Source of the DNA: Bacillus nitratireducens
GTDB lineage: Bacteria > Bacillota > Bacilli > Bacillales > Bacillaceae_G
DNA length: 64,000 bases
Direction of reading: 5' to 3'
Assembly: GCF_001884135.1 (NCBI RefSeq)
Contig: NZ_MAOC01000090.1
Location: 23,868 to 87,867, forward strand
The notes under the pieces are model-generated. The model was not told the DNA's origin. It did no database searches and worked only from the letters and a program-made list of their open reading frames with translations. Both the position numbers and the translations under genes were made by a program. Of this stretch, positions 18,664 through 32,579 are shown one piece after another. Position 1 is the first letter of the stretch, and every line of letters starts with the position of its first letter.

Positions 18664-18728
18664 TTATAGGAAATATGATCGCCTGCAACTATCGAATTAG
18701 CTTACGGAAGACTTACACTTTTGTAAGA
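18664..18728 (-). promoter_or_regulatory. Motif promoter 1 (cassette 1)
   Basis: On the minus strand: palindrome CTTACA-AAAG-TGTAAG (18728-18713), six bases, GTAAGCTAATTCGATAGT (18706-18689), nineteen bases, and a -10 TATAAT (18669-18664). There is no clear -35, as expected of an activator-dependent promoter. Confidence 0.85.
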
Positions 18729-18756
18729 AAAAAAGACATTCGTGTAAGAATGTCCT

Positions 18757-19623
18757 TCAAAGCATATTGATATGATGATGCTCTTCAATTGTTTTTAAAA
18801 AGCTACGCATTGAATTCGTCATATAGCTATCTTTACGGCGTATGAAAACCGTTGAAATACTACCGTATTTTTCAGGGATTGCATGACAATGTACCTTACC
18901 AGCTTTAGAAAGATGGTGGACAGCAGACTGCGGTACGAGTGTAATACCAAGGCCGAGTGCAACACTGTTTAGTATTGTTTCTAATATATTAAATTCCATA
19001 ATTCTTTTTGGCAGCAAACCTTCATCTTTAAGCCAACGTTCTAGCTTGGAACGGTATCCACATCCTTGATTAAAAACGAGTAGGGGCGTCGTAGTGAATT
19101 CTTCTATATGAAAAGCTTTATTTTGTGTAACAAGCATTAGTTTTTCGGTACTAACATCGTATTGTTCAATTAGTGGATGTTTAATAGGCCCTGATATAAA
19201 TGCACCATCTAATTGGTGATCGATTACTTCTCTAATAAGTTCTTCTGTTAGACCAGCTTGTAATGATAAATCAACATTTGGATAGCTCTTATAGTAAGAA
19301 GACAAAATGGTAGGCAATGTGCTTACTGTTTCGACTGTACCAATTTTTAATATACCAGATGGTGTTTCGCTATCTAAAAACACTTGTTTTAGCTCTTCAA
19401 CATCTTGCAAAATTTTATGAACATAAACGAGCATTTTTCTTCCTTCAGCCGTTAAAGTCATGCCTCGTTTATGACGGTAAAAGAGCGGTGTTTTTAGCTC
19501 GTTTTCTAATTGTTTAATACGTGCGGTTACATTTGATTGTACGTAATTTAATTCCTTTGCTGCGCCACTTACACTACCTTGGTCGGCAACGCTCTGGAAG
19601 ATTTGTAAGTCTCTTAATTCCAT
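18757..19623 (-). CDS. LysR-family transcriptional regulator
   Basis: A 288-residue regulator. The winged HTH occupies residues 1-60 (LRDLQIFQSVADQGSVSGAAKELNYVQSNVTARI), and the substrate-binding domain follows from about residue 88. AAGGAGG precedes the ATG at 19623. It is divergent from an EamA-type exporter gene, with a perfect inverted repeat between them that contains a T-N11-A type LysR site. The arrangement suggests that it controls the exporter and itself. The effector is unknown. Confidence 0.9.
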   Translation of the reverse strand: MELRDLQIFQSVADQGSVSGAAKELNYVQSNVTARIKQLENELKTPLFYRHKRGMTLTAEGRKMLVYVHKILQDVEELKQVFLDSETPSGILKIGTVETVSTLPTILSSYYKSYPNVDLSLQAGLTEELIREVIDHQLDGAFISGPIKHPLIEQYDVSTEKLMLVTQNKAFHIEEFTTTPLLVFNQGCGYRSKLERWLKDEGLLPKRIMEFNILETILNSVALGLGITLVPQSAVHHLSKAGKVHCHAIPEKYGSISTVFIRRKDSYMTNSMRSFLKTIEEHHHINML

Positions 19624-19637
19624 AGTACGATCCTCCT

Positions 19638-19674
19638 TGATGTTAACTATCATTATAAGTGATAGTTAACATCA
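19638..19674. promoter_or_regulatory. Inverted repeat between the LysR and EamA genes
   Basis: TGATGTTAACTATCA (19638-19652) and its exact complement (19660-19674) flank seven bases. It lies between the divergent genes and fits a LysR-type operator. Confidence 0.75.
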
Positions 19675-19748
19675 TTTTGAATCATTTTACGTGATATATT
19701 TTTTCTTTTACAATTCTCTTTGTGCAAATAGAAAGAAGCGGGGGGATT

Positions 19749-20720
19749 ATGGTGAGAAGAGGTCAAATGATAATAGGGGCTTTAGCATGTTTAATTGCAA
19801 GTATGTCATGGGGAGCAATGTTTCCGGTTGCTGATCATGCGTTAGAATACATAGATCCATTTTATTTTTCACTTATTCGCTACGGAGCGGTGGCGATCGT
19901 ATTGATTGTATTGTTGCTAATGAAAGAAGGTAAGAAGGCATTTCGCTTAGAGGGAAGAGGAAAGTTACTCGTCTTTTTTGGAACAATGGCGTTTACCGTA
20001 TATAATGTATTAATTTTTCTAGGACAAATGTTAATGGGGAAATCAGGTGTAATGGTAGCTTCTATTATGGAGGCGCTGATGCCGATGATTTCAATTTGTA
20101 TTTTATGGGGATATAAAAATATAAAGCCGAAGAAGTATATGATAACGAGCATGATTATCGCGTTTGTAGGGGCTATATTTGTTATTACGAAAGGTGATAT
20201 GAGTTTCTTTTTAACATTGAAAGATAACATGTTTTCGCTAGCATTTATATTTGTTGGTGTTGTAGGATGGGTAATTTATACGATGGGTGGTCAAACGTGT
20301 AGCGATTGGTCAACATTACGCTATTCTACTTTGACGTGTGTATTGGGTACAACTGTCACAGGGATGATAACTGTAGTCATTACAGTGCTTGGATATGTAT
20401 CTGTTCCAAGTATGGAAACGATTTCTATTGTGAAGTATGATTTGTTATTTATGATGACATTACCAGGTATCGTAGCACTACTTGCTTGGAACTACGGTGT
20501 GAAAATCTTATCATCCATTAATGGTATTTTATTTATTAACTTTGTGCCAATTACTACTTTAGTTATTATGATGATGCAAGGGTATAAAATAACAACATTT
20601 GATATTGTAGGAACATTATTTGTTATTGCAGCGCTTATTCGTAATAATGTTTGTCAGAGAAAAGAAGAAAATGCAAATAAACAAATGTTGCAAGAAAAGC
20701 AATTGCGCCAAGCTGTTTAA
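19749..20720 (+). CDS. EamA/DMT-family transporter
   Basis: A 323-residue membrane protein with ten predicted helices in two EamA repeats. The N-terminal repeat opens with IASMSWGAMFPVADHALEYI, and the second begins near residue 165. A basic, glutamine-rich tail follows the last helix. Such proteins usually export metabolites or amino acids. The start is at 19749 (ATG) or 19752 (GTG), just after GGGGGG. It is divergent from the LysR gene and is followed by a small membrane protein gene 21 bases later, probably in the same transcript. Confidence 0.87.
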   Translation: MVRRGQMIIGALACLIASMSWGAMFPVADHALEYIDPFYFSLIRYGAVAIVLIVLLLMKEGKKAFRLEGRGKLLVFFGTMAFTVYNVLIFLGQMLMGKSGVMVASIMEALMPMISICILWGYKNIKPKKYMITSMIIAFVGAIFVITKGDMSFFLTLKDNMFSLAFIFVGVVGWVIYTMGGQTCSDWSTLRYSTLTCVLGTTVTGMITVVITVLGYVSVPSMETISIVKYDLLFMMTLPGIVALLAWNYGVKILSSINGILFINFVPITTLVIMMMQGYKITTFDIVGTLFVIAALIRNNVCQRKEENANKQMLQEKQLRQAV

Positions 20721-20741
20721 TAGGCAACTGGAGGATTTTAT

Positions 20742-20882
20742 ATGTTAGAAAGTTTATTGTTTTTCTTTGCTGCTGGAGTTGCCTGCGAGCTTGCGGCAAT
20801 TAATCGAAACGGTCGTAAGAATATAAAACAACAAGCTGAATTGATACAGCTTTTAAGAGAATTGAAGGAAAGAAAAAATTAA
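20742..20882 (+). CDS. Small membrane protein, 46 aa
   Basis: CTGGAGG precedes the ATG. The 46-residue product has one hydrophobic helix (LESLLFFFAAGVACELAAI) and a basic, coiled-coil-like tail ending KERKN. It follows the EamA transporter gene by 21 bases and precedes its terminator, so it may be an accessory to the transporter. No family recognised. Confidence 0.6.
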   Translation: MLESLLFFFAAGVACELAAINRNGRKNIKQQAELIQLLRELKERKN

Positions 20883-20917
20883 AAAGACGACCGGGCATAG
20901 ACGGTCGTCTTTTTCTA
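20879..20917. terminator. Terminator after the EamA operon
   Basis: AAAAAGACGACCG and CGGTCGTCTTTTT pair around GGCATAGA. The same hairpin recurs almost unchanged at 21981-22015. Confidence 0.9.
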
Positions 20918-32022: not shown

Positions 32023-32113
32023 TTGTATATATGCCCCTTTAAAATATGTGTAAAAATCCCGCTTAATACATTCGGGAAAAGGAGGAGGAAATCCTTTAAA
32101 GGGAATAGGGAAA

Positions 32114-32163
32114 AATAAAAGACAAGATATCCTCATTACAATAGGGTACCTTGTCTTTTATTT
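32114..32163. terminator. Terminator of the three-peptide operon
   Basis: AAAAGACAAG and CTTGTCTTTT form the base of a hairpin, with ATATCC/GGGTA inside. It overlaps the last codons of the 40-aa peptide gene. Confidence 0.82.
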
Positions 32164-32280
32164 TTTCTTCAATAGTGTGTATGGATAATATAGAGCATTT
32201 GCATTTTGTTTCTTTTTTCTATTTTTTATTGTGTATAAGGCAATTGCCGTACTTGCGATTACAATAATGGCTTTCTTCAT
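32158..32280 (-). CDS. Small basic membrane peptide, 40 aa
   Basis: A 40-residue product with a hydrophobic helix (KKAIIVIASTAIALYTI) and a strongly basic tail (KNRKKKQ ... LLKKK). AAAGGGG lies nine bases before the ATG at 32280. It is the third gene of the operon under motif promoter 8. No relative in this window; function unknown. Confidence 0.65.
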   Translation of the reverse strand: MKKAIIVIASTAIALYTIKNRKKKQNANALYYPYTLLKKK

Positions 32281-32296
32281 ATTCATATACCCCTTT

Positions 32297-32374
32297 TTAT
32301 TGTTGGTTTAATTCTTGGCTAACTGCTTTTGCGTCGACTAAAGCGTGTAAAATCATTTTCACCATGTTCATCAT
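32297..32374 (-). CDS. Small amphipathic peptide, 25 aa (B-like)
   Basis: A 25-residue peptide MMNMVKMILHALVDAKAV followed by SQELNQQ. AAGGAG is ten bases before the double ATG. The core ALVDAKAV...LN is shared with the B peptides of cassettes 1-3, so it belongs to that family. Second gene of its operon. Function unknown. Confidence 0.7.
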   Translation of the reverse strand: MMNMVKMILHALVDAKAVSQELNQQ

Positions 32375-32390
32375 ATTCCTTCACTCCTTT

Positions 32391-32471
32391 TTATAGTTCG
32401 TTTAGTTCTTTTACAACTGCTTGTCCGTTCACTAATACCTCAAAGATTGCTTTTACGATTTCTTTCATCAT
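32391..32471 (-). CDS. Small amphipathic peptide, 26 aa (B-like)
   Basis: A 26-residue peptide MMKEIVKAIFEVLVNGQAV followed by VKELNEL, with AAGGAGG before the double ATG. It is first in the operon under motif promoter 8 and shares the pattern of hydrophobic residues and terminal LN with the 25-aa neighbour. As a helix it would be amphipathic, reminiscent of phenol-soluble-modulin-like peptides; that comparison is only by eye. Confidence 0.7.
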   Translation of the reverse strand: MMKEIVKAIFEVLVNGQAVVKELNEL

Positions 32472-32514
32472 AATTGTTTTCCTCCTTGTTTTTGTCTCTC
32501 TTGTTTATACCTTT

Positions 32515-32579
32515 ATTGTATAGGGAGGCATCTTTTCGTACTATCGCTTTCCATTACGTGAACATAACAGTTTTGTAAG
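32515..32579 (-). promoter_or_regulatory. Motif promoter 8 (three-peptide operon)
   Basis: CTTACA-AAAC-TGTTAT (32579-32564), six bases, GTAATGGAAAGCGATAGT (32557-32540), nineteen bases, -10 TACAAT (32520-32515). This is the most degenerate member, but it keeps every spacing. Confidence 0.78.

What the first reader, a model, noticed from the sequence alone, without database searches (positions are those of the whole stretch)
18664..32579. A dispersed regulon defined by a rigid new promoter motif
Eight promoters within 14 kb share one layout: CTTACA-N4-TGTAAG, exactly 6 bases, an 18-base element GTAAnnTAATTCGATAGT, exactly 19 bases, then a -10 (TATAAT, TACAAT, TAAAAT, CATAAT or TATAGT). None has a good -35. 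The GTAAG half-sites lie 11 bases apart, one helical turn, as for OmpR-type activators. The promoters serve three peptide cassettes, a decayed cassette, an orphan transcript, a 37-aa peptide, a three-peptide operon and a YxeA-family gene. Constant spacing across otherwise unlike leaders means selection, not mere duplication. I know of no description of this regulon.
Basis: partly seen in the sequence, partly recalled or inferred. Interest (0 to 1): 0.92.

Follow-up and report, generated by a model that had tools for sequence, protein, structure and literature searches.

The report
Bce-type stress promoters driving tiny peptides
Eight promoters in this Bacillus stretch are real and share one rigid layout, but the layout matches the known switch of bacterial peptide-antibiotic defence systems, here placed in front of tiny membrane-type peptides of unknown role.

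Summary
In detail: all eight promoters have the stated layout with exact 6-base and 19-base gaps. The reading "new promoter motif" is not supported: it is the promoter type of Bce-class (BceR/PsdR/YxdJ-like) response regulators. A weight matrix made from bceA promoters of other genomes, collected by protein similarity, ranks exactly these eight sites on top in the window (25.9-40.2; next 12.2; best of 200 random windows 23.6). Elsewhere the layout, with a -10 after 19-20 bases, lies before BceA-type ATPase genes (34 of 41 loci). What looks new is the output: none of the eight leads into a transporter; they lead into DUF3948 peptides, 25-33-aa amphipathic peptides, a 37-aa peptide and a YxeA-family gene. 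The five strong relatives of the amphipathic peptides, in three other genomes, all sit behind this operator, one of them found by protein model alone. Best reading: a dispersed Bce-type envelope-stress regulon with unstudied tiny-peptide effectors. The regulator in this genome, binding, start sites and peptide function are untested; no genome of this strain is held and I found no B. cereus-group chromosome to survey.

The parts
18663..18727 (-). Promoter 1 (cassette 1): palindrome 18712-18727, second element 18688-18705, -10 TATAAT 18663-18668
   Evidence: matrix score 35.8
18514..18615 (-). Cassette 1, first peptide, 33 aa, amphipathic-peptide family
   Evidence: aligned with relatives
18400..18501 (-). 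Cassette 1, second peptide, 33 aa, DUF3948 (PF13134)
   Evidence: E 2e-17
21198..21262 (-). Promoter 2 (cassette 2): palindrome 21247-21262, second element 21223-21240, -10 TACAAT 21198-21203
   Evidence: score 40.2
21051..21152 (-). Cassette 2, first peptide, 33 aa
   Evidence: aligned
20943..21038 (-). Cassette 2, second peptide, 31 aa, DUF3948-like by likeness to cassette 3
   Evidence: reading; its own Pfam scan was not run
22461..22525 (-). Promoter 3 (cassette 3): palindrome 22510-22525 (1 mismatch), second element 22486-22503, -10 TACAAT 22461-22466
   Evidence: score 34.6
22312..22413 (-). Cassette 3, first peptide, 33 aa
   Evidence: aligned; no Pfam or PHROGs family
22204..22299 (-). 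Cassette 3, second peptide, 31 aa, DUF3948
   Evidence: E 5.9e-13
25064..25128 (+). Promoter of the YxeA-family gene: palindrome 25064-25079, second element 25086-25103 (3 mismatches), -10 TAAAAT 25123-25128
   Evidence: score 34.2
25166..25522 (+). YxeA-family gene (DUF1093, TIGR01655); start at 25166 inferred, because the ORF start listed at 25127 overlaps the -10
   Evidence: PF06486, 2.3e-13; TIGR01655, 7.6e-14; both scans used the listed ORF from 25127
25750..25814 (-). Promoter of the decayed cassette: palindrome 25799-25814, second element 25775-25792, -10 TACAAT 25750-25755
   Evidence: score 30.3; 69-70% identity to the cassettes
25799..25863 (+). Divergent promoter of a short transcript: same palindrome, second element 25821-25838 (1 mismatch), -10 TATAGT 25858-25863; terminator-like stem 25942-25963
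   Evidence: score 36.8
25977..26041 (+). Promoter of the 37-aa peptide: palindrome 25977-25992, second element 25999-26016, -10 CATAAT 26036-26041
   Evidence: score 36.7
26097..26210 (+). 37-aa hydrophobic peptide; terminator-like stem 26221-26250
   Evidence: no family over cut-off
32515..32579 (-). Promoter of the three-peptide operon: palindrome 32564-32579 (2 mismatches), second element 32540-32557 (3 mismatches), -10 TACAAT 32515-32520
   Evidence: score 25.9
32391..32471 (-). First peptide of the operon, 26 aa, amphipathic-peptide family
   Evidence: read by eye; aligned; no Pfam family
32297..32374 (-). Second peptide, 25 aa, same family
   Evidence: read by eye; aligned; no Pfam family
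32158..32286 (-). Third peptide, 42 aa, hydrophobic segment and basic tail (net charge +10)
   Evidence: no family over cut-off

Best explanation
The eight sites are targets of one or more Bce-type response regulators (BceR/PsdR/YxdJ class). In such systems an ABC transporter of the BceAB type senses a cell-envelope-active peptide and makes an intramembrane-sensing kinase phosphorylate the regulator (established for BceRS-BceAB). The phosphorylated regulator is inferred to bind the palindrome as a dimer and a further molecule the direct half-site one turn downstream; the complex stands in for the missing -35, so that RNA polymerase starts from the -10 placed 19 bases after the element. Here the output is not the transporter but a dispersed set of tiny peptides (a DUF3948 family and an amphipathic 25-33-aa family), a 37-aa peptide and a YxeA-family protein, probably helpers in envelope protection or in tuning the Bce system. 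Shown: layout, its identity with bceA promoters of relatives, recurrence of the peptide and YxeA types behind the operator elsewhere. Inferred: regulator, binding, signal. The peptide function is a guess (about 0.4); the confidence given is for the operator class.
For: Matrices from bceA promoters of other genomes pick exactly these eight sites as the top eight in 64 kb (25.9-40.1, next 1.0, best of 12 random windows 9.3, trained on bceA genes found by protein: 25.9-40.2, next 12.2, best of 200 random windows 23.6). Of 30 bceA-homologue loci fetched by protein similarity (of 66 matches in 61 genomes), 27 carry the palindrome within 220 nt upstream, 14 with the second half-site in the same register. 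34 of 41 pattern loci lead into a BceA-type ATPase, 46-67% identical to that of L098. Order response regulator - kinase - operator - ATPase - permease in G061 and G001; the G061 transporter matches PsdA/PsdB and BceA/BceB chains. Best -10 at 19 (25) or 20 (21) bases in 49 sites of other genomes, against 2 and 0 with shuffled spacers. Peptides of the same family behind the operator in G061, G275 (three) and G200, the last found without the motif; 5 of 30 fetched YxeA-family loci with the operator. YxeA-type genes belong to Bce modules in B. subtilis and L. lactis (PMC3968067 and PMC7438565, passages).
Against: I saw no bce gene, response regulator or kinase in the ORF lists of the window (read by eye; the last two with a 130-aa minimum), and no genome of this strain is held, so the regulator is not identified. 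Most bceA promoters of the pattern-found set have TGAAAG at the second half-site, the window GTAAG/GTAAT, so a distinct paralogous regulator is possible. 16 of 30 bceA loci fetched by protein lack the second half-site in this register, 3 of them the palindrome too. 25 of 30 YxeA loci lack the operator. The peptide family outside the window rests on five strong hits in three of 333 genomes; nine weaker hits have no operator. No transcription data.
Confidence: 0.85

Rival explanations
1. The likeness of the promoters is only duplication of one cassette; spacing is inherited, not selected.
For: Three cassettes are 78-90% identical and a decayed fourth 69-70% to them; repeat families D1 and D2; two promoters share one palindrome.
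Against: Among all pairs of the eight sites the 40-base operators are 65-92% identical while the 19-base spacers range over 0-63% and the next 60 bases over 22-53% (ungapped). YxeA, the 37-aa peptide and the three-peptide operon have unlike leaders. The same layout stands before bceA, YxeA, lipoprotein and peptide genes in other genomes.
Confidence: 0.05
2. Another OmpR-family regulator (for example of the HssR/HitR type, which may be what lies beside one peptide gene in G061) controls these promoters.
For: In G061 an OmpR/PhoB-type response regulator, a kinase, a permease and an ATPase lie directly downstream of the peptide gene (L018); the order resembles hssRS-hrt, a name given from memory and not resolved.
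Against: HssR and HitR use a direct repeat (PMC3968170, passages), while the core here is an inverted repeat. Of the 12 neighbourhoods that I listed (4, 8) only L018 shows that set, whereas the operator lies inside bceRS-bceAB-type modules in L098 and L101.
Confidence: 0.07
3. The operator is Bce-type, but the peptides are secreted bacteriocin-like or membrane-toxic peptides made under envelope stress rather than helpers. (This is about the function of the output and does not exclude the operator class.)
For: Tiny, hydrophobic or amphipathic, several copies; five adjacent DUF3948 genes were the most raised transcripts in a plasmid-cured B. cereus strain (PMC10196113, passage), which shows strong regulation.
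Against: By eye I noticed no export, processing or immunity genes beside them (no dedicated search). Net charge in the amphipathic family runs from -4 to +4. No match in Pfam (7 peptides) or PHROGs (5 peptides).
Confidence: 0.2

Closest known systems
[quoted passage not shown] subtilis)
   Same: T-N-ACA-N4-TGT-N-A inverted repeat, second half-site about one turn downstream, -10 19-20 bases after the element (compared with bceA promoters of fetched genomes; the B. subtilis promoters themselves were not fetched); YxeA as a module member
   Different: No transporter follows in the window; targets are dispersed tiny peptides; second half-site is GTAAG/GTAAT rather than the TGAAAG usual in the pattern-found bceA set
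GraR regulon of S. aureus and VirR of L. monocytogenes
   Same: Regulators described as orthologues of BceR with inverted-repeat operators; GraR has several dispersed targets (PMC3128592, passages)
   Different: GraR targets named in the passages are mprF, dlt, vraFG and others; I saw no tiny peptides of these two families there
Accessory small proteins of Bce modules: VraH, YsaD/YxeA
   Same: Small proteins encoded with a Bce-type transporter (PMC7438565, passages)
   Different: The window peptides are shorter and stand apart from any transporter
DUF3948 (PF13134)
   Same: Second peptide of cassettes 1 and 3 belongs to it
   Different: Two papers in the library name it; the one opened (one passage) gives no function and no promoter

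Membership tests
Bce-type response-regulator promoter | Inverted repeat T-N-ACA-N4-TGT-N-A | tested here: met
   8 of 8 promoters; 27 of 30 bceA loci of other genomes
Bce-type response-regulator promoter | Second half-site and -10 in the register of bceA promoters | tested here: met
   Top eight sites of a bceA-trained matrix; best -10 offset 19 in all eight, 19 or 20 in 46 of 49 sites elsewhere. Only 14 of 30 bceA loci have this register
Bce-type response-regulator promoter | The same layout stands before Bce-type transporter genes in relatives | tested here: met
   34 of 41 loci
Bce-type response-regulator promoter | Binding of, and dependence on, a phosphorylated Bce-type regulator | not testable with these tools
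   Needs experiments
Bce-type response-regulator promoter | A Bce-type regulator encoded in the same genome | not testable with these tools
   No genome held for the window; none seen in the window's ORF lists
Complete Bce detoxification module | Two-component system and BceAB-type transporter encoded together at the locus | tested here: not met
   None of the eight promoters leads into a transporter or two-component gene; so the locus is not filed as a Bce module
DUF3948 (PF13134) | Match over Pfam cut-off | tested here: met
   63 and 48.7 bits against 25 for cassettes 1 and 3; cassette 2 not scanned
YxeA family (TIGR01655) | Match over NCBIfam cut-off | tested here: met
   52.3 bits against 29.65
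HssR/HitR targets | Direct-repeat operator | tested here: not met
   Operator core is an inverted repeat; direct repeat of HssR/HitR per PMC3968170 passages

The most novel reading that the evidence does not exclude
Bce-type systems in Bacillales have a second, undescribed effector arm besides transporters: stand-alone tiny amphipathic and transmembrane peptides (with YxeA and Lipoprotein_22 proteins), expanded into a multi-copy dispersed set in this lineage, that protect the membrane or retune the transporter-kinase complex under peptide attack.
Probability: 0.5. Interest if true: 0.68.

Novelty: new variant of a known kind. Interest (0 to 1): 0.5.

Why it matters
It gives several unannotated or 'unknown function' peptide genes, including the DUF3948 family reported as the most raised transcripts in one B. 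cereus comparison (PMC10196113, passage), a likely signal pathway and a simple test: induce with bacitracin, nisin-type or cathelicidin peptides and look. It also supplies a 40-base matrix that separates the eight sites cleanly from the rest of this window and could list whole Bce regulons in related genomes.

Tried and rejected
Whole-genome regulon count in the window's own strain: not possible, no genome held. DUF3948 rang in 0 of 398 genomes of the class and in 0 of 14 control genomes, so that search does not show absence. No match in plasmids for the DUF3948 peptide, none in plasmids or phages for cassette 3 DNA. The strict pattern gave 1 stretch in genome contigs and 0 in viral contigs.

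Palindrome alone as evidence: rejected, hardly above chance.

YxeA as a general marker of the operator: rejected; 5 of 30 fetched YxeA-family loci score above 20, one of them the seed locus itself (L073), one with a poor -10 (L090). One search had looked at one strand only and gave 3 of 30; one search replaces it.

The regulator beside the G061 peptide as the cognate one: not favoured; one search did not resolve it to one family.

Rows dropped: of the 16 sites, L006 and L008 were left out, because they had no -10 at the expected place and no ordinary upstream position. One search covers 38 of the 54 sites and 3 more; 16 sites were not in it (4 of them were read: L050 cut by a contig end, L051 and L054 ATPase, L052 a small ORF). 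In one search the pattern at 3 mismatches hit the reversed control once (G061), and L053, L055, L057 and L059 look like chance. Of the 5 peptide hits below 1e-7, 4 are rows of the query alignment; 9 weaker hits (5e-4 to 0.05) have no operator and are taken as false.

Circularity: the training loci were found with a pattern shaped on window-like sites. One search repeats the test with bceA loci found by protein, anchored on the palindrome alone (26 distinct sequences from 27 of 30 loci); 9 of the 30 loci are places that the pattern had also found.

My running notes gave about 32 of 41 ATPase loci; one search counts 34 of 41.

Papers: Dintner 2011, Fang 2017 and de Been 2008 are not held; the first two are recalled, the third recalled and seen as cited in passages of PMC3128592 and PMC3231935. 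All other papers cited were seen as passages only.
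Full report
What was checked. The eight promoters were cut out in register. Each has the 16-bp palindrome, 6 bases, the 18-bp element, 19 bases and a -10 hexamer. Exact palindromes: 6 of 8 promoters; exact 18-mers: 5 of 8. The palindrome at 25799-25814 is shared by two divergent promoters. The palindrome alone is hardly above chance at 3 mismatches (50 found, 38 expected); the 18-mer is well above (11 against 1.3). None of the 60 sigma-70 pairs shown (61 found) falls on these -10 sites.

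Duplication. Cassettes 1-3 are 78-90% identical and the decayed one 69-70% to them (repeats). So four of the eight are copies. Over all pairs the operators keep 65-92% identity while the 19-base spacer ranges from 0 to 63%.

Where else the layout occurs. A strict pattern found a single stretch in genome contigs: a MAG labelled Bacillus coagulans, with the motif upstream of a YxeA-family gene. From that genome as centre, 397 genomes of its order gave 16 sites in 13 genomes at up to 3 mismatches and none in the reversed control. A generalised pattern at up to 1 mismatch gave 54 sites in 50 of 397 genomes, again none in the reversed control. Of 41 loci examined (38 of those 54 sites and 3 more), 34 lead into a BceA-type ABC ATPase, 46-67% identical to that of L098, starting 48-71 bases after the element except in L039 and L040, where a 30-aa ORF comes first. 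The other seven: three tiny peptides, YxeA, a lipoprotein, a protein read as DUF418-type (L011, by eye) and one (L007) without a clear target. L006 and L008 were left out as likely chance.

It is the Bce operator. In G061 and G001 the operator lies in modules with the order response regulator, kinase, operator, ATPase, permease (L098 and L101; the regulator in L101 was read as a partial ORF). The G061 permease matches PsdB (1.2e-85) and BceB (4e-37), and the ATPase PsdA (1.7e-94) and BceA (6.1e-74), among PDB chains. As a test that starts from proteins, bceA homologues were collected by similarity (66 matches in 39 of 61 genomes, 30 loci fetched): 27 of 30 loci have the palindrome within 220 nt upstream and 14 of 30 the second half-site in the same register. 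A matrix from the 26 distinct sequences scores the eight window sites 25.9-40.2; the ninth site in the window scores 12.2 and 200 random windows reach at most 23.6. The first matrix (35 sequences) gives the same eight. In 49 sites of other genomes the best -10 lies at 19 bases (25) or 20 (21), with shuffled spacers 2 and 0. The rigid layout is thus shared with Bce-type promoters of other genomes; 16 of the 30 bceA loci use another register or lack the sites, so it is one type of Bce promoter, not the only one. In print, BceR of B. subtilis and VirR of Listeria bind inverted repeats, and a 2008 survey reported AAGTGACA-N4-TGTCATTT before vraFG (PMC3128592, passages). The Lacticaseibacillus consensus AnnTTACnAnnnnGTnAG is of the same kind (PMC10858260, passages). 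The two-site (M1/M2) model of B. subtilis Bce promoters is recalled, not read.

The output. The second peptide of cassettes 1 and 3 is DUF3948. The first peptides and two of the three peptides at 32.3-32.5 kb align with each other and with tiny peptides behind the operator in G061 and G275. A profile of that family run on 333 genomes gave five hits below 1e-7: the four known ones and a new one in G200, which also carries the operator (score 31.7 with the matrix) although found by protein alone; nine weaker hits have none. In G200 it is followed by a Lipoprotein_22 gene; members of that family carry their own operator in G061 and G275. G275 has ten sites at up to 3 mismatches, none in the reversed control: three such peptides, a BceA-type ATPase, an FtsX-type permease without an ATPase beside it, a transglycosylase, a Lipoprotein_22, a DUF4870-like protein (name recalled) and two overlapping sites without a clear target. 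A YxeA gene of G275 has the operator too (L077). Of 30 fetched YxeA-family loci 5 have the operator. This makes a recurrent set: peptides, YxeA, Lipoprotein_22, envelope enzymes and the transporter.

Mechanism. Established for Bce systems (passages): the transporter senses the antimicrobial peptide and drives the kinase; the regulator activates its promoters. Inferred here: a regulator dimer on the palindrome and a further molecule on the half-site 11 bases downstream, with RNA polymerase recruited to a promoter lacking a -35. The peptides' role is open; membrane protection or tuning of the transporter-kinase complex is preferred over a bacteriocin role. One transcript study found five adjacent DUF3948 genes to be the most raised in a plasmid-cured B. 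cereus strain (PMC10196113, passage), which shows strong regulation but not its cause.

Limits. I found no chromosome of that group in the collections searched, so the regulator and the full regulon in this lineage are unknown. The claim that the peptide arm is not in print rests only, in an open-licence library.

Noticed in passing
L137, L139, L141, L142 (upstream of bceA): By eye, several bceA promoters with the palindrome have a TGTAAG/TGAAAG half-site about ten bases further downstream, as if another class of Bce promoters used two helical turns instead of one.
   Followed up: no
window 22028-22184 and 27017-27174: Two inverted copies of a repeat of about 150 bases (78% and 95% over two parts), resembling the bcr1 repeat of the B. 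cereus group (name recalled).
   Followed up: no
L007/L062 (G275:C1:2101934-2101986): Two overlapping divergent Bce-type sites, similar to the shared palindrome at window 25799-25814; no clear target gene.
   Followed up: partly
window 25858-25963: The divergent transcript from the shared palindrome ends in a terminator-like stem and I saw no convincing ORF: a small RNA or a decayed gene. No RNA-family search was run.
   Followed up: no
L039, L040 and L052: 30- to 46-aa hydrophobic ORFs directly behind Bce-type operators, in L039 and L040 just before the ATPase gene: perhaps further tiny peptides in Bce operons.
   Followed up: no
L018 9018-13290 (G061:C18): A tiny peptide gene with the operator lies next to a two-component system, permease and ATPase of hssRS-hrt-like order (name recalled).
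   Followed up: partly
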